In this document: piece by piece, positions 43,560 through 56,353 of the stretch
How positions within the stretch are numbered: position 1 is the first letter of the stretch
Layout: each line of letters opens with the position of its first letter
Source of the DNA: Candidatus Angelobacter sp. Gp1-AA117
Lineage (GTDB): Bacteria; Acidobacteriota; Terriglobia; Terriglobales; Acidobacteriaceae
Length of the DNA stretch: 64,000 bases
NCBI GenBank assembly: GCA_003223515.1
Contig: QHVI01000039.1
Coordinates: 1-64,000, forward strand
Direction of reading: 5' to 3'
Notes under the pieces: generated by a model
Database searches by the model: none
Told to the model about the DNA's origin: nothing
The model's input: only the letters and a program-made list of their open reading frames with translations
Position numbers and translations under genes: made by a program

Positions 43560-43687
43560 AATTGGTAAATGGGTAATTTGGTAATTGCATAAATGAAGCA
43601 GATTTGGAATTGGTAAGTGTAATCTGAATCGCAGAGTATTGAGGCAAAAGCCAAAGCTAAGAGCCATTTGCTAGCTGCTAATTGCTA
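43560..43687. repeat. TTACCCA-type and CTAGCTG-type tandem repeats
   Basis: Directly after rlmH, units of ggtaaatg, ggtaattt, ggtaattg (about 43564-43591) show period 8. Just before the next gene a 7-nt period ctagctg, ctaattg, ctatgac (43669-43689) runs into the start codon. The second type also occurs at 2650-2685. Confidence 0.5.
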
Positions 43688-44223
43688 TGACAGACATTCA
43701 TCGCGGACTTATCATCGTGAATACCGGCCCCGGCAAGGGCAAGACCACCGCCGCCATGGGCACGGCTCTGCGCGCTGTGGGCAACGGCATGAAGGTGCTC
43801 ATGCTGCAGTTCCTGAAAGGTTCATGGCATTATGGTGAACTCGATGCCGTGAAAGCTTTCGGTGATAAGTTCATCATGAAGCAGATGGGGCGCGGCTTTG
43901 TGAAAGTCGGCGGGGCCGAGACCGATCCCGAAGACATCCGCATGGTGGAAGAAGCCTGGGAAGAGGCGCGGCAGGCCATCAACTCCGGCCAGTGGGATCT
44001 GGTGATCCTGGACGAGATCAATTACGCCATCAGTTACGGCATGATTGATCCCGGCAAGGTGGTTGAGGCTTTGAAGCAGAAGCCGGAGCAGGTACACGTA
44101 ATCTTGACGGGCCGCAATGCTCATCCGACAATTGTTGAGTTGGCCGATACCGTGACCGAAATGAAGCAGGTCAAACACGCTTACGAAAAAGGCGTAATGG
44201 CCCAACGCGGAATCGAGTATTGA
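43687..44223 (+). CDS. cobO: Cob(I)yrinic acid a,c-diamide / corrinoid adenosyltransferase
   Basis: 178-residue CobA/CobO/BtuR-type enzyme that adenosylates cobalamin or its precursors using ATP. The P-loop NTGPGKGKTTAAMGTALRAVG near residue 12 is typical. VLMLQFLKGSWHYGE, LVILDEINYAISYGMI and VILTGRNAHPTIVELADTVTEM follow the family pattern. The length is somewhat shorter than the E. coli enzyme, which has an additional N-terminal helix. No other cobalamin genes are in the window. Confidence 0.92.
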   Translation: MTDIHRGLIIVNTGPGKGKTTAAMGTALRAVGNGMKVLMLQFLKGSWHYGELDAVKAFGDKFIMKQMGRGFVKVGGAETDPEDIRMVEEAWEEARQAINSGQWDLVILDEINYAISYGMIDPGKVVEALKQKPEQVHVILTGRNAHPTIVELADTVTEMKQVKHAYEKGVMAQRGIEY

Positions 44224-44389: not shown

Positions 44390-45241
44390 TTGGCTTGGTT
44401 TAAACGCGAATCCACCGAAATCCAATCATCCGACGAGAAACGTGTGCGTACAGAAGGTTTGTGGGTCAAGTGTGAGGGTTGCCGCCAGATCATCTGGAAG
44501 AAAGAGTTGGAAGAGAACCTGAATGTCTGTCCCAAGTGCGATTACCATTTCCGCATCGATGCCTTCACCCGCCTCTCTCTCTTGTTGGACGACGCCGCTT
44601 TCTCGGTTGAAGATGAGAAACTCTCTTCCACCGATCCCTTGAACTTCTTTGACACTCGCACTTATAAGGCGCGCCTGCAGAAAAGCCAGAATGATACCGG
44701 CCTGAAAGATGCCGTCGTAAATGCCGAAGGAAAGATCAACGGCCGCCCGGTGATCGTGAGTGCCATGGAATACTCCTTCATCGGCGGCAGCATGGGCGCG
44801 GTGGTCGGAGAAAAAATCACCCGCGCCATCGAACGAGCCGCCGCTCAGCGTAAACCCATCATCGTAGTTTCTGCCTCCGGTGGCGCCCGCATGATGGAAG
44901 GTGTGGTCAGCCTGATGCAGATGGCAAAGATTTCTGCCGCACTCGCCAGGTTGGATAATGCGCGTGTTCCCTACATTTCCCTGCTCACCGATCCCACCAC
45001 CGGCGGCGTGACTGCTTCTTATGCCATGCTGGGCGATCTCAACATCGCCGAACCCGGCGCGCTCATTGCTTTTGCCGGTCCGCGAGTCATTGAGCAGACC
45101 ATTCGCCAGAAGCTCCCGGAAGGCTTTCAGCGCAGCGCTTTTCTGCTGGAACACGGAATGCTGGACGCGGTTGTGCACCGCAGAGATTCAAAAAACTACA
45201 TCGCCCGCGCGCTGGACTTCATGGCGCCCAGAGCCGCCTGA
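44390..45241 (+). CDS. accD: Acetyl-CoA carboxylase carboxyltransferase subunit beta
   Basis: 283-residue subunit that transfers the carboxyl group from biotin to acetyl-CoA in fatty-acid synthesis. The four-cysteine zinc ribbon is seen early (VKCEGCRQIIWKKELEEN then VCPKCDYHF), followed by the crotonase-like core with IGGSMGAVVGEKITRA, VVSASGGARMMEGVVSLMQM and TGGVTASYAMLGDLNIAEP. TTG 44390 is used because GAGGG lies about eight bases upstream and the protein begins MAWFKR as in homologues. folC follows after one base. Confidence 0.96.
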   Translation: MAWFKRESTEIQSSDEKRVRTEGLWVKCEGCRQIIWKKELEENLNVCPKCDYHFRIDAFTRLSLLLDDAAFSVEDEKLSSTDPLNFFDTRTYKARLQKSQNDTGLKDAVVNAEGKINGRPVIVSAMEYSFIGGSMGAVVGEKITRAIERAAAQRKPIIVVSASGGARMMEGVVSLMQMAKISAALARLDNARVPYISLLTDPTTGGVTASYAMLGDLNIAEPGALIAFAGPRVIEQTIRQKLPEGFQRSAFLLEHGMLDAVVHRRDSKNYIARALDFMAPRAA

Positions 45242-45242
45242 T

Positions 45243-46583
45243 ATGGCCGGCAGCTATGAAGATGCAGTTTCCGAACTTCTAGCAAATGGCCCGGAGTTAG
45301 CAGTCTTCCTGCGTTTTAATCTTGATTCCATCACCAGGCTTGCTGCCGCTTTAGGAAATCCGGAAAGGCGGCTCCTAGCCGTATTAATTGCCGGAACCAA
45401 TGGCAAAGGCTCAACGGCCGCCACATTAGCCGGCATTGTACAGGCCGCCGGGTACCGCACTGGCTTGTACACTTCGCCTCACTTGCTCCAGATCAACGAG
45501 CGTATCCAGATCAATCAAGAGCCGATCAGTAATGCGGAGTTTGCTGAAATTTATGATCGCGTACAAAGCGCGTCCCTGCAGCTCATTCAGAGGGGCACTC
45601 TGTCTTCTCATCCCAGCTTTTTCGAGATGCTCACGGCCATGATGTTTGAGTATTTTGCCAGCGCCGGTGTTGAGCTGGCCATCGTTGAAGCAGGCATGGG
45701 CGGAACCGATGATGCCACCAACATTGTCGACCCTATCCTCTCCATCATCACCGACGTTGATTTCGACCACGAAGATTATTTAGGCAAGACGTTGCGGGAA
45801 ATTGCTGCGAAGAAAAGCGGCATCATCAGGAGTAATGCTCCCGTGGTGCTCCTGCCGCAGCATCCGGAAGTGAATGACACACTAGGAAATGCGATTCTGG
45901 AGAAAAACGCTCGCCCGGTAAGCGCGACGAAACATATGCCGCCTTTAACTCCCGGAAGCCATAATTACTTTGCTCATAAGGCCAATCAAGTTCCACGCGC
46001 TGTTTTCCCGCTGCTGTTCATGGGAAAAGAAATCTTGGTGAACTCGCCGCTGGTTGGCCGGCATCAACTTCGGAACATCGCACTGGCAATCACTGCAGCC
46101 GAGCAACTCAATTCCTGCGGCTACAAAATATTGCCCACGCATGTGGAAGAAGGAACACAAAACACCAAATGGCCGGCACGGTTTCAAGTTTTTCTTTCAG
46201 GTGCAGACTTTCCTGAAGCCGTATTGGACGTAGCTCATAATCCTGCCGGCGCATGGGCGTTGCGTTCTACCCTTTCCGCTCTTTACGCAGATCGGCTACT
46301 CACTCTTATCTTCGGCTGCATGCGCGACAAGCACGTGAAAGAGATCATCCAGATTCTTTTCCCTTGTGCAGAACGCGTAATCGTGACCCGTGCGGACCAT
46401 CCCCGCGCTATGCCTGCCAGAGACATAGCGTTGGCAGCAGAAGACATGGGGGTTATGACGACGACTGCTGAAACTGTTCGCGAGGCCGTCAAGTTGGCAC
46501 GCAGCATGCCCATCCCCGGAGAAGTGTTGGTAATTACAGGCTCTTTTCCAATAGTAAAGGACGGACTCGAATTGCTGAGATGA
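45243..46583 (+). CDS. folC: Dihydrofolate synthase / folylpolyglutamate synthase
   Basis: 446-residue Mur-ligase superfamily enzyme that adds glutamate to dihydropteroate and folates. Visible motifs are GTNGKGSTAATLAGIVQ (P-loop), YTSPHLLQINERIQIN, VEAGMGGTDDATNIVDP, FDHEDYLGKTLREIAAKKSGI and VLDVAHNPAGAWALRS. The ATG is two bases after the accD TGA, so the two are translationally linked, as in many bacteria. It is the canonical member among three FolC-like genes in the next 5 kb. Confidence 0.93.
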   Translation: MAGSYEDAVSELLANGPELAVFLRFNLDSITRLAAALGNPERRLLAVLIAGTNGKGSTAATLAGIVQAAGYRTGLYTSPHLLQINERIQINQEPISNAEFAEIYDRVQSASLQLIQRGTLSSHPSFFEMLTAMMFEYFASAGVELAIVEAGMGGTDDATNIVDPILSIITDVDFDHEDYLGKTLREIAAKKSGIIRSNAPVVLLPQHPEVNDTLGNAILEKNARPVSATKHMPPLTPGSHNYFAHKANQVPRAVFPLLFMGKEILVNSPLVGRHQLRNIALAITAAEQLNSCGYKILPTHVEEGTQNTKWPARFQVFLSGADFPEAVLDVAHNPAGAWALRSTLSALYADRLLTLIFGCMRDKHVKEIIQILFPCAERVIVTRADHPRAMPARDIALAAEDMGVMTTTAETVREAVKLARSMPIPGEVLVITGSFPIVKDGLELLR

Positions 46584-46597
46584 GACGCCCAACAGGG

Positions 46598-47554
46598 CTA
46601 AAGTGCTGCCGAATCCGTCAGGACATCGTTGAAATGTTTCCGGAGCAGCTTCTTGTATATCCCCGCAACCAGATCGTTTTCGCGGGAGCCCTGCTGGTAG
46701 AGGTGCGTGAGTCCGGGATTTCCATTAACCTCCAGGACTATGGCTTCGGTGACAGGCCGGGCTATGTCACCGCACCGCAAATCGATGCCGACATATTCGA
46801 GTCCAGTAACTGCACATATCGTCTTTGCCCAATCCAGATAACTGGGGTGGACACGGGCGGTCTCGATTCGCGCACGGGCTCCGGAAGAAAGATTAGCAAT
46901 CAGGTTGAAACCAACCTTTTTGTAGCAAACCAACATGTCATCGTCCAGGAGCATGAGGCGATACTCGTTGCCTTTTACAAACTCCTGCACGATGAGCATA
47001 TATTCATCGGAGACCGAAAGAGCTTTTTTCAGCGCCGCAGAAATTTCTTGGGGTCCGTGGACGATGGAAACACCCAGGCCCTGCTGCAAATGTGCTGGCT
47101 TGATTACGATGGGATAGCCAGTTTCAGTTGCCAAACGTCGAGAGTACTTGCGGGCCTCATTCAGTCCCTTGCCCTTCGCGAAGTCAACTTTTGTAAAGCG
47201 GCCGCTCTTAAAGAAATAATCCCCACGTGGGATTTTGATTCCCGCACGGGACAGAAGCATGTATGTGTATACCTTATCGATTGTCAGATCGCAGCTACTG
47301 TAGGAATTCGGTGTAACTGCAGAACTTTTCAATGTGATTGATTTGCCGCGATAAGAGAGGCTGACAAGAAAACAGTATTTTGGATCGATGATTTTCCATT
47401 CAATACCCAATGATTCGGCGGCTGTACAGAGAATTTGCGTGGGCAATGGAAGCTTCAGGCCGGATGATGGATGCAGATAGTTATCTGCGTATGGCTGCCG
47501 GTCGGTCCTTTCCTGCGTGTCCTGAGACTTCTTATGCGTCATTTCAGCAGTCAT
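46598..47554 (-). CDS. ATP-grasp ligase, cyanophycin-synthetase/glutathione-synthetase-like
   Basis: 318 residues from ATG 47554. An upstream in-frame ATG (47725) would overlap the divergent ligase gene, so it is not preferred. The ATP-grasp fold is seen as YPIVIKPAHLQQGLGVSIV, YMLIVQEFVKGNEYRLMLLD and the metal-binding ending LEVNGNPGLTHLYQ, with GLEYVGIDLRCGDIA before it. This arrangement is closest in style to the ATP-grasp domain of cyanophycin synthetase and GshF, enzymes that join amino acids through acyl phosphates. It is convergent with folC and divergent from two FolC-like ligases 82 bp away, suggesting shared control and one pathway. Substrate unknown. Confidence 0.85.
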   Translation of the reverse strand: MTAEMTHKKSQDTQERTDRQPYADNYLHPSSGLKLPLPTQILCTAAESLGIEWKIIDPKYCFLVSLSYRGKSITLKSSAVTPNSYSSCDLTIDKVYTYMLLSRAGIKIPRGDYFFKSGRFTKVDFAKGKGLNEARKYSRRLATETGYPIVIKPAHLQQGLGVSIVHGPQEISAALKKALSVSDEYMLIVQEFVKGNEYRLMLLDDDMLVCYKKVGFNLIANLSSGARARIETARVHPSYLDWAKTICAVTGLEYVGIDLRCGDIARPVTEAIVLEVNGNPGLTHLYQQGSRENDLVAGIYKKLLRKHFNDVLTDSAAL

Positions 47555-47636
47555 CCCATTGATCCGCCACCCTGGGGCCGATCTCAATATACATTCAAGA
47601 GGAGAGTACGGTATATTTGGATTGTAAATTGTCCCG
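47555..47636. promoter_or_regulatory. Short divergent intergenic region, presumed shared promoter
   Basis: 82 bases separate the preferred starts of the ATP-grasp gene (minus) and the first FolC-like ligase (plus). The DNA is AT-rich toward the ligase side (tatattt, ttgtaaat). Both promoters must lie here or within the first codons. Specific -35/-10 pairs could not be assigned with confidence. Confidence 0.4.
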
Positions 47637-48938
47637 ATGACGAGTACTTCCGGATGGCAGAACCTGCTGGCATGGTCCGGTAGCACCGGACAAGGCAGAG
47701 AAGCGCGTACCCTCCGTTTTTCCACTATTTTGAAACGCTACGAGCAGGAATTTGGCAATCTCCCGCTCATTGTGAAGATTGCAGGCACGAGTGGAAAAGG
47801 ATCAACGGGGGCAATGCTCGAAGCGGCATTGGCGGCAGACGGCAAGAAGACAGGTTTCTTCACATCTCCCCATCTTGTTCACCCAACAGAACGAATCCGC
47901 GTGCAAGGAATCGATGCCACCAGTCAGAGTCTGGACCACGCGGCAGTCGAAGCGGCAAGCTTGCTGGAGGACATCGTGGACACGAGGGGTACAAGCTTTC
48001 GCCCTTCGTACTTTGAAACGCTGCTTGTGTTGGCCCTGAGGGCCTTTGCGCATGCGGCAGTCGAAATTGCCATCATGGAAGCGGGGATTGGCGGCTATAA
48101 CGATGTTATCAGCATGCTCGAAGGTCCGCTCTCTGCGATTACGGCCATAGGTTATGACCATATGGAAATTCTCGGTAATTCCCTGGCAAATATTGCAGCC
48201 GATAAAGCTGGCATAGCGAGCAGTTTTTCTGAACTGGTACTCGGGCCGCGTATCGATCCGCTGGCCCAAAAAGTAATTAAAAATGATGCAGAGAAGCGTG
48301 GGGTTCGATTGAGGATTGCTTCCCGGCAGAAGATACGATCTGAACCGCTCGGCCTAACAGGACACAGGATATATCTTGGTGCGGGCATAGGAGAGGACTG
48401 TTTCGTTTTACCTCTTGCCGGCGACTACCAAGTGGATAATTTAGCGGTAGCTGTGGAGATGCTGCAGGCACTTTGGGAGCGCGGTGCCGTTTCTCGAATG
48501 GAGAGCCTGAGCGGAGCAGCGATAATCCGCTGGCCTGCGCGGCTTGAGTACCTGCCGGGAATGCCTGCCTGGATTCTGGATGCTGCTCACAATCCACTGG
48601 CATTCGCGGAATTATTCAAATTCGTCAAGCAATTCCCACGAAAAGACCTGACATTGGTTTTCGGTGCCACCGAAAAGCTAAAGGCAGTTCAGGGACTAGG
48701 CCTTCTCGGGCCAGCCTTTCAACAGATCATTTTGGTCGACGGCTTCTACAGAGCTGTGCAGATCGAGTCGGCAGATTCGCTGGAATTACCACCTTATACC
48801 TATGTTCCAACTCCTGAAGAGGTGCTGCGCCGGGTTCTGAGTCAATACCATGGTCGCGAGCACACCATTGTAGTAACCGGCTCCATTTTCCTGGTCGGAG
48901 CGGTCCGGCAACTGCTGACGGAGCGCCGAACAGATTGA
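47637..48938 (+). CDS. FolC/Mur-type ligase A of the ligase cluster
   Basis: 433 residues of the Mur-ligase superfamily, FolC branch. The P-loop IAGTSGKGSTGAMLEAAL lies at residues 50-57, followed by FFTSPHLVHPTERIRV, MEAGIGGYNDVISMLEG, IGYDHMEILGNSLANIAADK and LDAAHNPLAFAELF near the C-terminus. All catalytic landmarks of FolC are kept, but the sequence differs widely from the canonical folC 1 kb upstream. It is divergent from the ATP-grasp gene and its stop overlaps the next ligase. It probably activates a carboxylate with ATP and couples an amino acid to it. The substrate is unknown. Confidence 0.85.
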   Translation: MTSTSGWQNLLAWSGSTGQGREARTLRFSTILKRYEQEFGNLPLIVKIAGTSGKGSTGAMLEAALAADGKKTGFFTSPHLVHPTERIRVQGIDATSQSLDHAAVEAASLLEDIVDTRGTSFRPSYFETLLVLALRAFAHAAVEIAIMEAGIGGYNDVISMLEGPLSAITAIGYDHMEILGNSLANIAADKAGIASSFSELVLGPRIDPLAQKVIKNDAEKRGVRLRIASRQKIRSEPLGLTGHRIYLGAGIGEDCFVLPLAGDYQVDNLAVAVEMLQALWERGAVSRMESLSGAAIIRWPARLEYLPGMPAWILDAAHNPLAFAELFKFVKQFPRKDLTLVFGATEKLKAVQGLGLLGPAFQQIILVDGFYRAVQIESADSLELPPYTYVPTPEEVLRRVLSQYHGREHTIVVTGSIFLVGAVRQLLTERRTD

Positions 48939-50296
48939 CTGATCATCCAACTTACAACGCCGCTCCCGGTATTCGAGCTAAGTTCCTGGCTTTACCGAAG
49001 CATGGGACCGGCATTGGTCTGCACAGAATGCTGTTTGTTACCCGGAGCCTGCCCTCGCCAATATGGCTCAACGGGCTGGAAGCTCTGAAGGTAACGGGCT
49101 CGAAAGGGAAAGGAAGTACTAGCGCGATGATCGCTGCAATCCTGCGGCAGCTCGGAATCAGCACAGGGCTTTATACATCTCCGCACCTGTTGAAAGCCAA
49201 CGAGCGCATCAGGATCGGCGATCGGCTTATCAGCGATGGGGAGATGGATGCGAGCCTGGAATGGATGCTTGCATTGCGAGATAGTTACGAATCACGTCAC
49301 TCCAATGACAACTTTGGCGCATTTGAAGTGCTGACCGGTGCCGCACTGTATCACTTTTTCAATCAGCGTCCTGAAACCATCGTCTGTGAAGCTGGCATCG
49401 GTGGACGATACGATTCGACGCGAGTCATACCAGGAAGGATAACGGCACTCACGTCTGTGGAGTTGGAACACACAGAATTGCTGGGAAATTCTGCAGAGCT
49501 GATTGCCTACGATAAAGCAGACTTGTGTCCGGACGGAGGCACGCTTGTGGCAGGGAAGCTTGAGGACGCATTGCTCCCGCGCCTCCGTGCTTATTGTGCG
49601 CTGCGCTCTATCACGTTCGTCGAGGCCGCCGCCGAGATTTCAGAATTGAAATATAACTCGGCCATGATGCAGTTCAAGATGTCTTGCGCCGGAATCGATT
49701 ACGGTACGATTGAAACCGGGTTGGTGGGAAAGCACCAGGCAAGAAATGCGGCGGTTGCAATTCAGGCTGTGTGGCACTGGCTGCAATGCAGCAAACGAGA
49801 GGTTGAGGAGCAGCGCTTTACAAGAGCCGTACGGGAAGCGTTTAAGGCAGTGCGCTGGCCGGGCCGCTTTGAACGGATTGCAGAAGATCCTGAAACCATT
49901 ATTGATGTGGGCCACACCCAACTGTCGCTGCATGCGGTTGCAGAAACAGTCCGGGAAATGAACAGCGCGAAGCCCATTATGCTGGTGACGGGTGTCTCCT
50001 ATGACAAAAATGTCAGGGGCATCTTAGATGAGCTGCTTCCCATTGCCACGGAAGTGATTTGCACGCGAGCCTATCACAAAGGATCGCCGGTGGAGACGGT
50101 GGCTGCTCTATGCGAAGCGATCCGCCGCGGGATTGTGTGGAAATCAGCCGATACCATCGAGGAGGCGATGGATCTGGCGGTAAGCCGCGCGCGCGAACAG
50201 AACATGACCGTGCTGGTGGCCGGTGGATTGTTTCTGGCGACAGAAGCATTTGTACATCTCTCCGGCGGCGATCCGCGTCTGCTACAGTTCTTTTAG
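48935..50296 (+). CDS. FolC/Mur-type ligase B of the ligase cluster
   Basis: 453 residues. TTG 48935 overlaps the preceding stop (TTGA), indicating translational coupling. GGAGCG about nine bases upstream may serve as ribosome-binding site. The P-loop VTGSKGKGSTSAMIAAILRQ (residues 55-62) is intact, followed by YTSPHLLKANERIRIGD, CEAGIGGRYDSTRVIPG and LEHTELLGNSAELIAYDKAD. The C-terminal substrate motif D-x-A-H-N-P of FolC is changed to DVGHTQ (IIDVGHTQLSLHA), so its second substrate is likely different. It may work with ligase A and the ATP-grasp enzyme in a stepwise ligation. Confidence 0.85.
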   Translation: MTDHPTYNAAPGIRAKFLALPKHGTGIGLHRMLFVTRSLPSPIWLNGLEALKVTGSKGKGSTSAMIAAILRQLGISTGLYTSPHLLKANERIRIGDRLISDGEMDASLEWMLALRDSYESRHSNDNFGAFEVLTGAALYHFFNQRPETIVCEAGIGGRYDSTRVIPGRITALTSVELEHTELLGNSAELIAYDKADLCPDGGTLVAGKLEDALLPRLRAYCALRSITFVEAAAEISELKYNSAMMQFKMSCAGIDYGTIETGLVGKHQARNAAVAIQAVWHWLQCSKREVEEQRFTRAVREAFKAVRWPGRFERIAEDPETIIDVGHTQLSLHAVAETVREMNSAKPIMLVTGVSYDKNVRGILDELLPIATEVICTRAYHKGSPVETVAALCEAIRRGIVWKSADTIEEAMDLAVSRAREQNMTVLVAGGLFLATEAFVHLSGGDPRLLQFF

Positions 50297-50409: not shown

Positions 50410-53400
50410 TCAAGATAGGCTTGCGGCACTGCTTCCCGTCTGTACCTGACCAAAAATGAGTGCAAAGATATGTGATTTACATAATCCTTCCAGACTGATG
50501 CCACCGCCGAAGCACGCTGCAGCACTCTCCGGAGTGACCGGTACCGCGCCCTGAAGAGCCAAAATCAGCAATGAGAGAACTCCCTGATACCACATGCCCT
50601 TTGCTTCTTGATACTCCTTTTTGAGCTCGATTGCTCGTGCAAGAAGTGTTTCCAGAGAGGACAGCCGGGCGCAGTAGTCTCCAAATAGACGAATGAACTT
50701 GGTACGCCGCACCTGGTTGGGGCTTATGGAAAAGTTCTGCGATCTGGAAATCATGCTGCCCAGGTCTTCTTCCATGGCCGCGACATTGCCACAAGCGGCA
50801 AACAACAGGGCACGGGTCTGGAAGGCCCAGGAGATGCCCGCATTGTGCGCGGCCCTGCGATTTAGCCTGATCGATTCATCGGCACATTGGAAAGAAGCGC
50901 CGAAATCTCCACCCAAGAGTACAGCGGCTGTCGCTTTAAGGTCCAGGATGCCTGCATATGTCAAGTAATAAGGAAGGTTCCGTGTTGCCTCAAGGGCAGC
51001 ATTGATAGCATCGAAAGCTTTTACAGCTTCAAATCGCCAGATGTACAACTGTGCCTGGTTACGAAGAGCCCTTCCATACCCTAATCGTTGCTTCGCTTTT
51101 CTTCTTATTTCCACCTCTTCTGCCAGGAGTGACTCAGCTTCATCATATAAGCCCATTTCAGAGAGGCATCCGGTGTAGAGAAGCTTGGAAGAAGAGTTGG
51201 TCCATCTGTGGTTTGAAGCAAGATATGCCTGCTTCAGCATTTGGGCCGCGGCGGGGTAGTCGGATTCATGGAAGTAGCGAATGAATGCAATCTGATGGCG
51301 GCATCGTGAGCTATAGGGATTGTCTACGGAGAGGCATTGCTCAAACACAACCCTGGCTTCCCTGTACTGTCCCCTGAATTGAAGGCAGCGACCCATGACA
51401 AAAGCCCATCTTGGATGGACTTGGTCGGGTATAGTCGGTCCAATTTCTGCCAAATCCTTCATAGCAAGCTCAATTTCGTGACATTCCAGATACTTCAGTG
51501 CCCTGATTGAAAGCAGCATGGTCATTGCATTGCGGTCCAGCCCTGCCCACATTGGCTTATGGCAAAGGAGCAAAAGCGTCTCGCGGGAGCCTTCGTTCTG
51601 GAGAAATTCAAGATAGTGCAGCAAGCGGTGGATGCCATAGGTCCCCAGATCACTGCTCAAGGAGGTCAGAATGTCGCGGAAAGATTCTGCGCCGTGCTTT
51701 TCCGTCTTCGGTATGGATTTATCGAATCCAAAGTTCAACCTTATGTATTCGAAGACCGTTGAGAGCAACATCTGCCTGGAAGTGGATTTGTTTTCGAGTG
51801 AAAGCAACTGAAGAAGGGCTGCGAAACAATGGTGATCGCTGCTGAGAGCCCACTCTGCGAAATAGGCCAATGCTCCTGAAAATATGTTGCTTTTCAAATG
51901 GCGTCCGGAAAGCAGCATATGCTCGTTGAGGAACTTTACCCTAGTGGATAGATCCTGGTGCTCGAGGCATTTGGCGCAGAAAAACAACGACAGGTAGTAT
52001 TCGAGCAGCCAGTCGGAACTAAAGCTTACGCCCGAAATGGTGGATGGTTGCAAACGGCTCTTCGCAAGGAAGAAGGTATGTTCCAAAAGCTGGGTGAAAA
52101 CTTCCAGATCAAGCTGCTCGTCTGCCAATCGAAGCGTTGAAATCGCAGGCTCGCGGGTCCGGGAAAGAACATCCGCAAGACGAATCATGAATATCTCTGC
52201 CCGCTCCCATATGGAAGAGGAGGCGGCCCAGCGCGTAGTGTCGGGACTGGTGATCTCCTTCAATAATAAGTATCTGATTGGGGATTCGGGAACATCGCAT
52301 CCGTCATACCGCACCATAAATAACTTGAGCAACAAAGGACGGTCCAGGAAAGTGCGCACATTCGCAGGTAAGTCCCGGTAGGCGGTGTTCGGCCGAATGC
52401 CTATTAAACGGCCTGCAAGATCGGAAATCTTCTGTTGCTTCCTGTAATGCTCGTAAAGAATTTCCTGCTCTGAAGTACCATTTTCCTGCGATGGATGCAG
52501 AATGGGCAGATCGATGGTGCTCAGAACCTGCTCCCTGCCGACCTCCTGTCCCTCAGAATATTGAAAGATGATATTCAGCGGGTCAGTGCTTTGCACGCGT
52601 ATCGGATCTGTGAGCAACTCGGGGGCCTGTTCCCGCAGGAACTCCGTTCTGATGCTGAGAATCAGTTTCAAAGTTCCGGCATGACCTTGAGATATTTCCT
52701 TCCATGCTTTCAGAAGCCGCAGGAAGCTTGCCTTAGAGGCGTGCTGCCATTCATTGAATGCATCGAGCACAATCGTCAGCTTCTGCCCATCTTCACCAAC
52801 GAAACGAACGAACGTCTGCAACTCGCCCGCGACTCCTAGCATGGGACAGATTGAACCAAGAGGTTCCGCGTTATCACCGGCTGTATTACCCTGAACAAGG
52901 ACAAACAAATCGTCCTGCCTCTGATGCTGCAGAACGAAATTGGCGAGCAGGTTTGTTTTGCCGGTGCCGGAAGCCCCGGACACTATCGCTGCTGAATATT
53001 CAGGCTCCTGAAGAAAGCGATGAATTTTTTTCTCGACAGGCCGTGGAACAAACAATTGGTCGTTGAAGATACCGGCCTGCTGCAAAGAATCAATGACCGC
53101 CTGATTATTTTGCTGAATCAGCGTTTTCGCATCGCGGCGGGTGAGTAATTCACACGGAATCGCCATGCCGCGGATGTTGAAAATCTGCTGTTTCTTCCTG
53201 TCGGCGAGAAGCCCTGCCGCTCTCCATTCGTTCCGCAGATCAGAGCGACTCCGCAGCAGGTTGTCGAGAAGGCAGGCTCGGCCCAACCGCTCCACTGAAG
53301 GACTGTTGCCGGAGACATTCTTGGCCAGCAAGTCCTCGTCCAGCAACTTTCCCTGAATGTAAGCGACTACCCGGAATTCGCGGAGATCGAATACTGGCCC

Positions 53401-53907
53401 ACCGCTCATGCCTTTTCCCACGGCCAGGTCCACCACTTCGAGCGTTCGGACCATCCTGCCTGAAGAGTGACGATATTCCACAATCCCGAGGGAGTGTCCA
53501 TCGACTACTCGCATTCGCAGAGGGGCGAATGGGTCTTCCATCGCGGGAAAGCCCAAGGCCACAAGCGTGTCGGCGGATTGATGGGACGAGAGGGAAATAT
53601 CCAGCAGCGGCACCGGCGCCGTCTTTTTATGGAGCAGCCGCTCATCTATGTGAAACATTGCGAAATCATGCTCCGGCCTGGATATCTCCGCGTCATAGTC
53701 CAGCAGCAACTGCTCATTTCCTAAACGGGCGCTGACCGATATTGTCGTATTGTGCGGATCGAGATAATGATGACAGGAACAGACATCGCCTGATTCGGAA
53801 ACAACAAAACCGGTTGCCACCGGTTTTTCGTCGATCATGATCAGGACAACGGATTCACGGAACAAATCTTCAATAGCTGGGTACAGTTGCTGTGGAAGAT
53901 AGGACAT
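50410..53907 (-). CDS. Trypsin-like protease / STAND NTPase / TPR fusion protein
   Basis: 1165 residues. Residues 1-220 form an S1-type protease: His46 or His47 in CSCHHYLD, Asp81 in PEHDFAMFHID and Ser168 in GKGMSGGPVFD complete a triad. A P-loop NTPase follows, with Walker A GASGTGKT at 311-318 and Walker B LTIVLDAFNEW near 378-387, as in STAND/NACHT proteins. From about residue 770 to 1090 helical TPR-like repeats are seen (RGQYREARVVFEQCLS, MGLYDEAESLLAEEVEIRR). An AGGA site lies seven bases before the ATG. The architecture matches conflict-type STAND proteins in which a repeat sensor controls an N-terminal effector. The trigger and target are unknown. Confidence 0.85.
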   Translation of the reverse strand: MSYLPQQLYPAIEDLFRESVVLIMIDEKPVATGFVVSESGDVCSCHHYLDPHNTTISVSARLGNEQLLLDYDAEISRPEHDFAMFHIDERLLHKKTAPVPLLDISLSSHQSADTLVALGFPAMEDPFAPLRMRVVDGHSLGIVEYRHSSGRMVRTLEVVDLAVGKGMSGGPVFDLREFRVVAYIQGKLLDEDLLAKNVSGNSPSVERLGRACLLDNLLRSRSDLRNEWRAAGLLADRKKQQIFNIRGMAIPCELLTRRDAKTLIQQNNQAVIDSLQQAGIFNDQLFVPRPVEKKIHRFLQEPEYSAAIVSGASGTGKTNLLANFVLQHQRQDDLFVLVQGNTAGDNAEPLGSICPMLGVAGELQTFVRFVGEDGQKLTIVLDAFNEWQHASKASFLRLLKAWKEISQGHAGTLKLILSIRTEFLREQAPELLTDPIRVQSTDPLNIIFQYSEGQEVGREQVLSTIDLPILHPSQENGTSEQEILYEHYRKQQKISDLAGRLIGIRPNTAYRDLPANVRTFLDRPLLLKLFMVRYDGCDVPESPIRYLLLKEITSPDTTRWAASSSIWERAEIFMIRLADVLSRTREPAISTLRLADEQLDLEVFTQLLEHTFFLAKSRLQPSTISGVSFSSDWLLEYYLSLFFCAKCLEHQDLSTRVKFLNEHMLLSGRHLKSNIFSGALAYFAEWALSSDHHCFAALLQLLSLENKSTSRQMLLSTVFEYIRLNFGFDKSIPKTEKHGAESFRDILTSLSSDLGTYGIHRLLHYLEFLQNEGSRETLLLLCHKPMWAGLDRNAMTMLLSIRALKYLECHEIELAMKDLAEIGPTIPDQVHPRWAFVMGRCLQFRGQYREARVVFEQCLSVDNPYSSRCRHQIAFIRYFHESDYPAAAQMLKQAYLASNHRWTNSSSKLLYTGCLSEMGLYDEAESLLAEEVEIRRKAKQRLGYGRALRNQAQLYIWRFEAVKAFDAINAALEATRNLPYYLTYAGILDLKATAAVLLGGDFGASFQCADESIRLNRRAAHNAGISWAFQTRALLFAACGNVAAMEEDLGSMISRSQNFSISPNQVRRTKFIRLFGDYCARLSSLETLLARAIELKKEYQEAKGMWYQGVLSLLILALQGAVPVTPESAAACFGGGISLEGLCKSHIFALIFGQVQTGSSAASLS

Positions 53908-53980: not shown

Positions 53981-54337
53981 TCAGTCGCTACAATGACAAG
54001 TTGCGTCATATCCATATTCAACGAGAAGAACAGCTACGCTAATGGCTCCATGGGTAGGAAGCCCGGTAAGACTTGCAATGAAATCAGAGACGCTCGCGAC
54101 GAATTTCGCTTTCTGTCCTATGTTTTTTTTCTTCTCACAATACTTCCAATCAACACATAAGAGGTGAGAGATCTTGTGGAGCCAGCCGTCAAATGACTTT
54201 TTCATATCGGCAGCAACGCCGGTTGCCTGAGCTGGCGCAATTCCAAAGGTCTGGCGATACGTCTCTTCATACCACCGGCCAAGCAACTTCTCCTGTGGTT
54301 CGTTTAGATAAGCGGCAACTATTTCTGATTGTTCCAT
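53981..54337 (-). CDS. Small protein upstream of the protease-STAND gene
   Basis: 118 residues. ATG 54337 is chosen over the in-frame GTG two codons earlier because GAGGT sits just upstream, though close. A charged, helical first part (EIVAAYLNEPQEKLLGRWYE) precedes a basic stretch with CVDWKYCEKKKNIGQK and a hydrophobic C-terminal segment (LTGLPTHGAISVAVLLVEYG). It lies 73 bp before the protease-STAND gene on the same strand and may be its partner or regulator. I do not recognise the family. Confidence 0.6.
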   Translation of the reverse strand: MEQSEIVAAYLNEPQEKLLGRWYEETYRQTFGIAPAQATGVAADMKKSFDGWLHKISHLLCVDWKYCEKKKNIGQKAKFVASVSDFIASLTGLPTHGAISVAVLLVEYGYDATCHCSD

Positions 54338-54457
54338 TACCACCTCTGGTTTGTCTGGTCGCCTGAACAGGCGTGCTTATCTTACATGATGAGCGCCGTT
54401 TCGAGCAGCGGGCAAATGCTATATTGATGAAGAACTTCGAAGCAAATGTAACTCATT

Positions 54458-55336
54458 TTGAAGCGTAAAACTGTGCCGGAAACTCCCAAACCCCAGGTTT
54501 CATATACCCAAAAGCCTGCTTTAGGGGTTGGCCATCTGCTGTCACGCCTGCGTTCGTACCTCATCTTCGATCCGCTGATCTGGATTTACACCATCATCCT
54601 GGGTGCAGTCTCTCTCTTCTGTTCTTTGTTTGATCGTGATGGCAGCCTTCAGCACCGCATCGCCCGGCTTTGGTCGCGCATGATTCTGGGAACCATTGGC
54701 GTGCACGTGCATGTGATCGGCATGGAAAAGGTTGATCCGGCCAAGCCGCACATCTATGCCGTCAATCATCTCTCCGCGCTCGATGTTCCAGTGCTGTACA
54801 AGCATCTGCCTTCGCAATTCCGGATTCTCGCCAAGAAAGAACTCTTCCGCTACCCCTTCCTGGGCTGGCACCTGCGCCGTTCAGGACAGATTGCGGTCGA
54901 CCAGGAGAATGTCCGCAACGCCGTACGCAGCATGGGACGCGCCGTGGAGAGCCTGAAGGCCAACATGTCAGTCATGATTTTTCCTGAAGGCGGACGCTCG
55001 GAAGATGGCCAGCTACAGGGGTTCATGGCTGGCGCGTTCTATCTGGGCATCAAGGCGCAGGTGGATGTTGTGCCCATGGCGCTGGTGGGAACCTATGAAA
55101 TTCTTCCGATGAATACGGGCCACATCATGCCCCAGCCGGTGTTTCTGCTGGTAGGCGATTCCATTCCGACTACCGGCCTGACTCTTCGGGATCTCGAAAA
55201 CCTCACTCAGCAGGCAAGGCACTCCATTGCTGAGCTGTACTACTCCCGCGCGTCCTTCCCTGACCTCCGCGACCAGCACCTCGAAAAGAATTCTTCGCGG
55301 CCCGAAAAGAAAATCCATAATGATGCTTCTCCGTGA
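54458..55336 (+). CDS. plsC: Lysophospholipid (1-acylglycerol-3-phosphate) acyltransferase
   Basis: 292-residue membrane-bound acyltransferase that makes phosphatidic acid. The catalytic HxxxxD motif is in AVNHLSALDVPVLYKHLP, and the second substrate motif is FPEGGRSEDGQLQGF. A hydrophobic helix (LIWIYTIILGAVSLFCSLF) precedes the catalytic part. The start is uncertain: TTG 54458 or GTG 54473, with no clear ribosome-binding site for either. It is divergent from the small gene at 53981-54337, and with it core genes resume. Confidence 0.88.
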   Translation: MKRKTVPETPKPQVSYTQKPALGVGHLLSRLRSYLIFDPLIWIYTIILGAVSLFCSLFDRDGSLQHRIARLWSRMILGTIGVHVHVIGMEKVDPAKPHIYAVNHLSALDVPVLYKHLPSQFRILAKKELFRYPFLGWHLRRSGQIAVDQENVRNAVRSMGRAVESLKANMSVMIFPEGGRSEDGQLQGFMAGAFYLGIKAQVDVVPMALVGTYEILPMNTGHIMPQPVFLLVGDSIPTTGLTLRDLENLTQQARHSIAELYYSRASFPDLRDQHLEKNSSRPEKKIHNDASP

Positions 55337-55621: not shown

Positions 55622-56353
55622 GTGAAGCCCAAGATCGCTATTCCTGAACCCTGCTCTTACGATGCCGATTACAGCGGACGCGCCCTGCCCGCCTACCTTC
55701 GCGCTGTTGAAAATGCAGGCGGCCAGCCAGTCGTAATTTCTCTCAACCTGTCTCCAGCAGAGATCGCGCGGCGCATCACTGAGTGTTCGGCCATCCTGCT
55801 GCCCGGCAGCAAGGCTGATGTTGATCCGCAGAAGTGGGGAGCGGAGCGGCACCCTCGGACCGCGCCTGCCGATCCTCTGCGCGATACGGCCGATGAACTG
55901 CTTCTGCAGGATGCCTATAACATGCACAAGCCCATTCTCGGCATCTGCTATGGATTGCAGTCGCTGAATGTCTGGAGAACAGGCACACTCCTGCAACACA
56001 TTGAAACCAGCGTGAACCACACCCCTGCCAACAAGATCGAGCCGGCGCACGAAGTCATGGTGGAATGCGACTCACTACTCGCGGATCAACTGGAAGTTTA
56101 TTCTCACCGGGGCGTTATTCCGGTGAACTCCAGCCATCATCAATCGGCGGAGCAGGTGGGCGATGGCCTGCGGGTTGTGGCTCGATCAGCAAAAGACGAT
56201 GTGATTGAGGCCATTGAAGGAACCTTGCCGAATCATTACGTGCTGGCGGTGCAGTGGCATCCGGAGCGCAGCTTTGAGCATGATCATGCCTCTCGCAATC
56301 TCTTCCGGGGATTCGTCGACGCCGCCAGCCACTGGAAGCCTGCGAACCCTTAA
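55622..56353 (+). CDS. Class I glutamine amidotransferase-type gamma-glutamyl hydrolase (peptidase C26)
   Basis: 243-residue protein of the gamma-glutamyl-gamma-aminobutyrate hydrolase/C26 family. The nucleophile Cys109 lies in ILGICYGLQSLNVW and the His213/Glu215 pair in AVQWHPERSFEHD, so the triad is complete. LPGSKADVDPQKWG and VNSSHHQSAEQVGDGL are typical of this family. The GTG start at 55622 fits the family N-terminus. It probably hydrolyses gamma-glutamyl bonds. The exact substrate is open. Confidence 0.85.
   Translation: MKPKIAIPEPCSYDADYSGRALPAYLRAVENAGGQPVVISLNLSPAEIARRITECSAILLPGSKADVDPQKWGAERHPRTAPADPLRDTADELLLQDAYNMHKPILGICYGLQSLNVWRTGTLLQHIETSVNHTPANKIEPAHEVMVECDSLLADQLEVYSHRGVIPVNSSHHQSAEQVGDGLRVVARSAKDDVIEAIEGTLPNHYVLAVQWHPERSFEHDHASRNLFRGFVDAASHWKPANP

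What the first reader, a model, noticed from the sequence alone, without database searches (positions are those of the whole stretch)
46598..50296. Three-gene ligase cluster: ATP-grasp enzyme divergent from two coupled FolC/Mur-type ligases
The sequence shows a cyanophycin-synthetase/GshF-style ATP-grasp ligase 82 bp from two overlapping FolC-like ligases, directly beside the canonical accD-folC pair. It is established that cyanophycin synthetase joins one ATP-grasp and one Mur-ligase activity to build a peptide-like polymer. Here the two chemistries are split into separate genes and a second Mur-type enzyme is added. I infer an amino-acid-ligating pathway, such as a short gamma-linked peptide, a modified folate or a cofactor tail. 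I know no described system with this composition.
Basis: partly seen in the sequence, partly recalled or inferred. Interest (0 to 1): 0.75.

Follow-up and report, generated by a model that had tools for sequence, protein, structure and literature searches.

The report
Folate-ligase relatives beside immune-like protein
A bacterium has gained a small block of genes next to its folate-building gene: two unusual relatives of the folate-tail ligase, a third peptide-bond ligase, and a protease-sensor pair that looks like bacterial immunity; parts of the block recur in distant bacteria, so it is probably a real and undescribed system.

Summary
An ATP-grasp gene (ATPG) is head-to-head with two overlapping FolC-family ligase genes (M1, M2), immediately after accD-folC. 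The ligases are not recent folC copies: M2 (32 rows) and M1 (6 rows) are clades separate from 32 canonical FolCs, which include those of many of the same genomes and of E. coli. M2 keeps FolC's catalytic residues but swaps invariant pocket residues. M2 occurs in several phyla; ATPG lies directly upstream in 60 of 80 fetched loci, all of these in or grouping with alphaproteobacteria. In 6 of 16 M2 genomes examined, M2 lies within about 3 kb of, or is fused to, the only other folC.

A trypsin/NACHT/TPR STAND protein and a 120-aa partner follow M2 convergently here, in two other Acidobacteriota and in a planctomycete; the STAND was not found in 296 other genomes of the phylum. The five genes separate folC from plsC, which adjoin in 5 of 5 congeners inspected: an acquired cassette.

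Best guess: ligases that cap a folate-type glutamyl tail, guarded by the STAND protein. The chemistry and immune role are inferred.

The parts
44390..45241 (+). accD, native neighbour (context, not part of the cassette)
   Evidence: same order accD-folC in congeners
45231..46583 (+). canonical folC; start approximate (the mechanical ORF begins at 45021)
   Evidence: 340 bits to TIGR01499; in the canonical FolC clade with congeners; GC3 0.55 against 0.62-0.71 in flanking genes
46598..47554 (-). ATPG: CphA/GshF/RimK-type ATP-grasp ligase (long ORF to 47725)
   Evidence: carries the invariant columns of a 15-row family alignment
47637..48938 (+). M1: FolC-family ligase of a separate clade, catalytic and Ser403-equivalent residues kept
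48935..50296 (+). M2: FolC-family ligase of a separate, widespread clade; GGLF and DVGHT motifs, C-terminal FF
50410..53907 (-). STAND protein: trypsin-like protease + NACHT/AAA + TPR, convergent with M2
53981..54343 (-). small 120-aa partner of the STAND protein (weak match to PADLOC PDC-M35B)
54458..55336 (+). plsC-like acyltransferase, native neighbour that directly follows folC in 5 of 5 congeners inspected (right edge of the inserted block)

Best explanation
An acquired five-gene cassette (ATPG, M1, M2, STAND, small protein). Its ligase core is a FolC-derived amide-ligation module. M2, the conserved core, uses FolC chemistry (ATP gives an acyl phosphate on the acceptor's end carboxylate, which an amine attacks) to add something other than plain glutamate to a folate-type glutamyl tail made by FolC or by its paralogue M1. 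ATPG either makes the amino-acid or dipeptide unit that M2 attaches (as Ddl does for MurF) or adds a final cap (as MptN does in sarcinapterin). The STAND protease and its partner are best read as a guard that responds when this product or its enzymes are disturbed. Shown: the genes, their clades, conserved catalytic residues, swapped pocket residues, repeated linkage to folC and to STAND, acquisition of the block. Inferred: folate-type acceptor (about 0.45), order of steps (about 0.25), guard role (about 0.35).
For: Clades: M2 32 rows (100/99), M1 6 rows (100/100), canonical FolC 32 rows (100/98); the same three groups in a 72-row tree. Catalytic residues kept in all M1 and M2 rows compared (E. 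coli K60, E146, H173, K188, R289, D302, H305); 90-100% of 21 M2 rows change FolC-invariant D172 to E, N306 to T and S403 to G, and near-invariant N157 to R and G190 to D. Partners: ATPG directly upstream of M2 in 60 of 80 loci, nearby in 5. folC: M2 fused to or within about 3 kb of the only other FolC-family gene in 6 of 16 M2 genomes searched (distances); a rough binomial chance is 5e-12. M2 follows glyA in L037; folC-ATPG, without M2, on a 7.9-kb contig of G380. STAND: 4 lineages in two phyla have M2 convergent with STAND and the small gene, while 0 of 296 other genomes of the phylum had the STAND. Block between folC and plsC absent in 5 of 5 congeners inspected; GC3 0.45-0.59 inside, 0.62-0.71 in flanks.
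Against: No product or activity is known. Outside alphaproteobacteria only 4 of 18 M2 loci have ATPG within the fetched flank, some of them short contigs, and M1 occurs in only 5 of 80 loci plus the window. In 9 of 16 genomes M2 is not near folC. 17 of the 20 other M2 genomes searched have no STAND homologue (E at most 1e-20), so the STAND cannot be required for the ligation. M2's pocket changes could equally mean a non-folate acceptor. The 80 loci are dominated by Bradyrhizobium relatives and are not independent; they are the best 80 of 114 hits.
Confidence: 0.45

Rival explanations
1. The ligases make a free small peptide or signal (for example a gamma-linked peptide) unrelated to folate; folC linkage reflects shared ancestry or an insertion hot spot. 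The STAND protein senses or is held silent by that metabolite.
For: M2 pocket residues that are invariant in FolC are changed; M1 lacks the conserved N157; the STAND pair recurs beside M2 in four lineages; L034 and L047 also carry a papain-like protein beside M1-M2.
Against: M1 and M2 score as FolC family and the M2 model is nearest FolC, not CphA or MurC-F. FolC linkage occurs in unrelated organisms (SAR324, Chloroflexota, Azospirillum, a myxobacterium, a gammaproteobacterium), including a FolC-M2 fusion.
Confidence: 0.27
2. M1 and M2 are spare folylpolyglutamate synthases (backup or longer tails); ATPG and STAND are unrelated passengers.
For: Both pass the FolC subfamily cut-off; M1 keeps the catalytic residues and the FolC Ser403 and N306.
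Against: Separate deep clades; M2 loses residues invariant in all 14 canonical FolCs compared; ATPG in 65 of 80 loci; STAND linkage.
Confidence: 0.13
3. The ligases modify proteins: ATPG, like RimK, adds residues to a protein C terminus (perhaps the M2 tail or the small partner), marking it for the STAND protease.
For: M2 ends in FF in 68 of 80 loci and FL in 7, a strictly placed C-terminal motif not seen in the FolC and M1 tails listed; ATPG model also matches RimK and ArgX; the STAND has a trypsin-like domain.
Against: The FF tail is kept in loci without ATPG near; FolC-family enzymes are not known (recalled) to act on proteins; the small proteins' tails were not compared systematically.
Confidence: 0.08

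Closest known systems
FolC (dihydrofolate synthase / folylpolyglutamate synthase)
   Same: Fold (M2 model against FolC structures, TM about 0.8), P-loop, metal and carbamate-lysine residues, SPH loop, an N-terminal GLxRM-like loop in M2; over the TIGR01499 cut-off.
   Different: M1 and M2 are separate clades in genomes that also have a canonical folC; M2 swaps FolC-invariant pocket residues, has GGLF for TGS(L/I)Y and a C-terminal FF.
Cyanophycin synthetase CphA1
   Same: Pairs an ATP-grasp with a Mur-type ligase; ATPG is nearest to the CphA ATP-grasp part.
   Different: Not one polypeptide; the Mur-type parts are FolC-like, not CphA-like (31 bits or less); no cyanophycin cut-off reached.
MptN / CofF / MyfB cofactor-tail ATP-grasp ligases
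   Same: ATP-grasp enzymes that finish or extend glutamate tails of one-carbon cofactors (MyfB and MptN: PMC8141765, abstract and passages read; CofF from its model name and memory).
   Different: ATPG scores low on the MptN and CofF models (42 and 32 bits, cut-offs 350 and 300) and lies in the CphA/GshF neighbourhood.
Ddl + MurF of peptidoglycan synthesis
   Same: Possible logic (recalled): ATP-grasp makes a dipeptide, Mur-type ligase attaches it.
   Different: M2 is FolC-branch, acceptor differs; the dipeptide step is only a proposal.
Avs-type and trypsin/STAND conflict proteins with small partners (Trypco; PADLOC PDC-M35)
   Same: Protease + STAND NTPase + repeats, with a small co-encoded protein (Kaur et al. 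2020, PMC7159879, passages read).
   Different: Only weak matches; the small protein matches no Pfam family; a word search of that paper's main text finds no ATP-grasp, FolC or Mur ligase.

Membership tests
FolC (TIGR01499) | Score over the curated cut-off | tested here: met
   M1 260, M2 266, folC 340 bits; cut-off 162.65
FolC (TIGR01499) | Falls inside the canonical FolC clade | tested here: not met
   M1 and M2 each their own strongly supported clade
FolC (TIGR01499) | Keeps FolC-invariant residues of the binding pockets | tested here: not met
   M2: D172E, N306T, S403G (invariant in 14 of 14 canonical rows), N157R (N in 13 of 14); M1 keeps D172, N306 and S403 but not N157
FolC (TIGR01499) | Adds glutamate to dihydropteroate or tetrahydrofolate | not testable with these tools
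   needs enzyme assay or complementation
Cyanophycin synthetase | ATP-grasp and CphA-type Mur domain reaching the family cut-off | tested here: not met
   ATPG 95.8 bits, cut-off 850; M2 31.3, M1 16.5 on TIGR02068; separate genes
MptN / CofF / RimK glutamate ligases | Score over the curated cut-offs | tested here: not met
   MptN 42 (350), CofF 32 (300), rimK_fam 65 (143) bits, cut-offs in brackets
Known anti-phage system (PADLOC) | Full-length match of the STAND gene to a known system | tested here: not met
   only partial matches of 31 bits or less, to RT-Protease_XI, Avs2, LmuA, PDC-M35A and others
Trypsin/STAND + small partner conflict pairs | Trypsin-like domain, STAND NTPase, repeats and an adjacent small protein | tested here: met
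   function as defence not tested

The most novel reading that the evidence does not exclude
A metabolite-coupled immune module: the ligases give the cell's folates (or a folate-like molecule) a non-glutamate cap, and a protease-armed STAND sensor with its small partner fires when that cap, or the enzymes that make it, is disturbed by an invader. This would tie one-carbon cofactor chemistry to prokaryotic immunity and would define two new FolC subfamilies.
Probability: 0.17. Interest if true: 0.88.

Novelty: new variant of a known kind. Interest (0 to 1): 0.63.

Why it matters
M1 and M2 pass the standard FolC model, so they are likely to be annotated as FolC. Two deeply separate subfamilies with altered pockets would mean that some 'folC' annotations are wrong and that an unrecognised tail modification of folate, or a new small molecule, exists in rhizobia and many other bacteria. 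Bradyrhizobium and Rhodopseudomonas species carry the ATPG-M2 pair, so the chemistry can be tested by knock-out and folate mass spectrometry. The recurring STAND protease links it to immunity-like systems, a pairing for which I found no description.

Tried and rejected
Chance neighbourhood or false ORFs: rejected.

Recent folC duplication: rejected by trees that include many of the genomes' own FolCs. The canonical FolC of the L045 genome, and of several others, was not fetched.

Split cyanophycin synthetase: rejected for M1 and M2.

Vertical inheritance in the genus: unlikely. Of 8 other species searched with M2, 7 gave one canonical-level match of 29-33% identity and one gave none; the folC-plsC junction has no insert in the 5 inspected.

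Plasmid carriage: ATPG hits on 23 plasmid records and M2 hits on 110 were all below 60% identity; the listed ones look generic. The STAND had no plasmid hit.

Exact direct or inverted repeats of 9 bases or more between 46451-46660 and 54331-54480: none, so no integration mechanism is proposed.

Led nowhere: ATPG alone as query of genome contigs found no relative. A papain-like protein beside M1-M2 in L034 and L047 matches no Pfam family, and a profile of the two found no third copy in the fetched loci. Glutamate-site residues could not be checked in print: PMC10861534 (abstract and passages) says ligand information for FPGS is scarce, and the paper on FolC pocket mutations is not held. The role of L. 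casei Ser412 (E. coli S403) in binding the incoming amino acid is recalled, not looked up.

Full report
WHAT IS THERE. folC ends 14 bases before the ATPG stop. ATPG resembles the ATP-grasp parts of cyanophycin synthetase, GshAB and RimK, below the NCBIfam cut-offs; its predicted structure (mean pLDDT 84) matches CphA1 and GshF first, then Ddl, RimK and ArgX. M1 and M2 pass the FolC cut-off; the M2 model (mean pLDDT 91) matches FolC structures first (TM about 0.8) and MurE, MurF and MurC later.

NOT RECENT COPIES OF FOLC. Among 70 FolC-family domains, with canonical FolCs of nine further M2 genomes and E. coli FolC added, M2 forms one clade of 32 rows (support 100/99), M1 one of 6 (100/100), and canonical FolC one of 32 (100/98). 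The window's own folC sits with its congeners. A first tree of 72 rows gave the same three groups. Rows were thinned by hand: the 63 loci L050-L112 were cut to 19 in the first tree, and further close relatives were dropped before the second.

RESIDUES. On an alignment of 14 canonical FolCs, 6 M1 and 21 M2, all three groups keep the nucleotide, metal and carbamate-lysine positions (E. coli K60, E146, H173, K188, R289, D302, H305; the roles are recalled). M2 departs, in 90-100% of its rows, where canonical FolC is invariant: D172 to E, N306 to T, S403 to G; and where it is nearly invariant: N157 to R, G190 to D. M1 keeps D172, N306 and S403 and loses N157. Of the 80 fetched M2 loci 68 end in FF, 7 in FL, 2 in LY, 1 in RG, 1 in MS (L049), and 1 is cut by its contig end (L047; the rest of that gene, on another contig, ends in FF); GG replaces GS near the end in 77, two (L046, L049) keep GS. 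S403 corresponds to L. casei Ser412 by the alignment; that this serine holds the incoming glutamate is recalled, not checked.

DISTRIBUTION. M2 was not found in the rest of the genus (of 8 other species, 7 gave one canonical-level hit and one none) and was found in 1 of 395 other genomes sampled across the phylum (that genome, G496, has a contig of the same 1,220,212 bases as the Thermoanaerobaculia record L042, so I take the phylum to be Acidobacteriota). M1 had no hit above canonical level in that sample (seven hits of 33-36% identity, each scoring higher against folC). ATPG gave only partial matches of 30-36% in 3 of 395 (at most four candidates scored per genome in these phylum searches). 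Yet a scan of 84,980 species genomes with the two-row M2 alignment gave 114 relatives, best 80 kept, in Acidobacteriota, Planctomycetota, Bacteroidota, Chloroflexota, SAR324, Myxococcota, a cyanobacterium, gammaproteobacteria and many alphaproteobacteria. The M2 tree does not follow organism kinship in several places (for example the cyanobacterium with Hyphomonadaceae, 100/100), which suggests transfer.

PARTNERS OF M2. ATPG is directly upstream on the same strand in 60 of 80 loci, near in another arrangement in 5, absent from the fetched flank in 15. By group this is uneven: 61 of the 62 loci that are labelled, or arranged and grouped, as alphaproteobacterial have it (not L052), but only 4 of the 18 others (L033, L039, L048, L063). 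A genome-wide search in the genomes of 14 of the 15 loci without it, plus two controls that have it (both found), gave strong unlinked copies for L042 and L052, partial matches of 128-149 bits for L034, L035 and L101 that may be other ATP-grasps, and nothing in nine. M1 lies next to M2 in five loci (L034, L041 fused, L043, L045, L047) and the window; because the loci were fetched around M2, M1 without M2 was tested only. None of L034, L041, L043 and L045 has an ATPG nearby; L047 has a RimK-type ATP-grasp just before M1. M1 and ATPG may thus be alternative partners, with the window a combination of both.

LINK TO FOLC. In 16 M2 genomes searched for FolC-family genes, chosen by me for diversity, the only other family member found lies beside M2 in six: fused in G527 (L033), adjacent in G529 (L035) and G530 (L036), one gene apart with ATPG between in G531 (L038, Azospirillum), 2-3 kb away in G532 (L039) and G540 (L101) (distances). 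In G539 (L063) one of two FolCs is about 7 kb away. In the other nine it is elsewhere. With a 20-kb target in 6.7 Mb the chance of six or more of 16 is about 5e-12, a rough figure that ignores shared ancestry and my choice of genomes. Further hints: M2 follows glyA, another folate enzyme, in L037; ATPG follows folC on a short contig of G380. The window's folC has a longer end branch than its five congeners in the tree (0.41 against 0.065-0.21) and a lower GC3 than its neighbours (0.55 against 0.62-0.71).

THE STAND PAIR. Downstream, convergent with M2, lie a 1165-aa protein with trypsin-like, NACHT/AAA and TPR parts and a 120-aa protein. Both recur downstream of M2 in the same orientation in L033 (35% and 36% identity) and L034 (26% and 24%, one gene between), and in the planctomycete of L047: its contig C246 opens with the last 105 residues of M2, then the STAND gene (35%) and the small gene (39%). 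The STAND was not found in 296 other genomes of the phylum (E at most 1e-40, at most two candidates scored per genome), in 17 of 20 M2 genomes (E at most 1e-20), or in 72,556 plasmid records. So every STAND homologue found lies beside an M2, but most M2 genes have no STAND. A cyanobacterial locus (L063) has a different trypsin/TIR/NB-ARC protein with a Trypco1 partner between ATPG and FolC, which may be coincidence. PADLOC gives only weak partial matches.

ACQUISITION. In five of five congeners inspected (of eight) folC is followed directly by plsC, a C26 peptidase and an SDR gene; in the window the 7.8-kb block separates folC from plsC. Its genes have GC3 0.45-0.59. No flanking repeats were found, and none of the five genes scanned is an integrase.

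HOW IT MAY WORK. FolC-type enzymes activate the acceptor's terminal carboxylate as acyl phosphate and let an amino acid attack it; terminal extension of the glutamate tail by FPGS is shown in PMC10861534 (abstract and passages read). The simplest reading of altered pocket, FolC fusion and folC linkage is that M2 works on the product of FolC, or of its stand-in M1, and attaches something other than glutamate. ATP-grasp enzymes make or cap such tails: MyfA and MyfB in methylofuran and MptN in sarcinapterin (PMC8141765, abstract and passages). Hence the proposal of a capped folate-type tail. The STAND pair would guard the pathway or its product. None of the chemistry is shown here.

NOVELTY. Searches for FolC or folylpolyglutamate synthase with ATP-grasp, Mur ligase, STAND, conflict or anti-phage terms (held open-licence library only; listings read, capped at 12 of 349 and 12 of 786) showed no paper describing such a set. 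A word search of the survey of STAND conflict systems (PMC7159879) finds no ATP-grasp, FolC or Mur ligase in its main text. The parts are known kinds; the two FolC subfamilies and their pairing with ATPG and the STAND pair appear undescribed. I therefore call it a new variant of a known kind, with a bolder reading left open.

Noticed in passing
L034:289-4083: Beside M1-M2 in Pyrinomonadaceae: a ferritin-like protein, a cysteine-rich probable RiPP precursor and an MbnB/TglH/ChrH-type enzyme, a RiPP-like cluster.
   Followed up: partly
L034:7463-8149 and L047:4932-5630: Two papain-like proteins of about 230 aa without any Pfam match next to M1-M2, sharing an NHYA motif; possible further component of the system.
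   Followed up: partly
L063:3440-11370: Cyanobacterial operon-like run FolC, TPR, Trypco1, trypsin-TIR-NB-ARC, ATPG, convergent with M2; the genome has a second FolC elsewhere.
   Followed up: partly
window 55622-56353: Class I amidotransferase / peptidase C26 (family of gamma-glutamyl hydrolases) shortly after folC and plsC, kept in the five congeners inspected.
   Followed up: partly
window 43687-44223: cobO-type corrinoid adenosyltransferase between rlmH and accD, also in the congeners inspected.
   Followed up: no
window 46598-47554: The window's ATPG lacks a central stretch of about 50-60 residues carried by most relatives, making it RimK-sized.
   Followed up: partly
L041:6573-9326 and L033:4554-7433: Natural fusions M1-M2 (Bacteroidia) and FolC-M2 (Acidobacteriia), M2 the C-terminal half in both.
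   Followed up: yes
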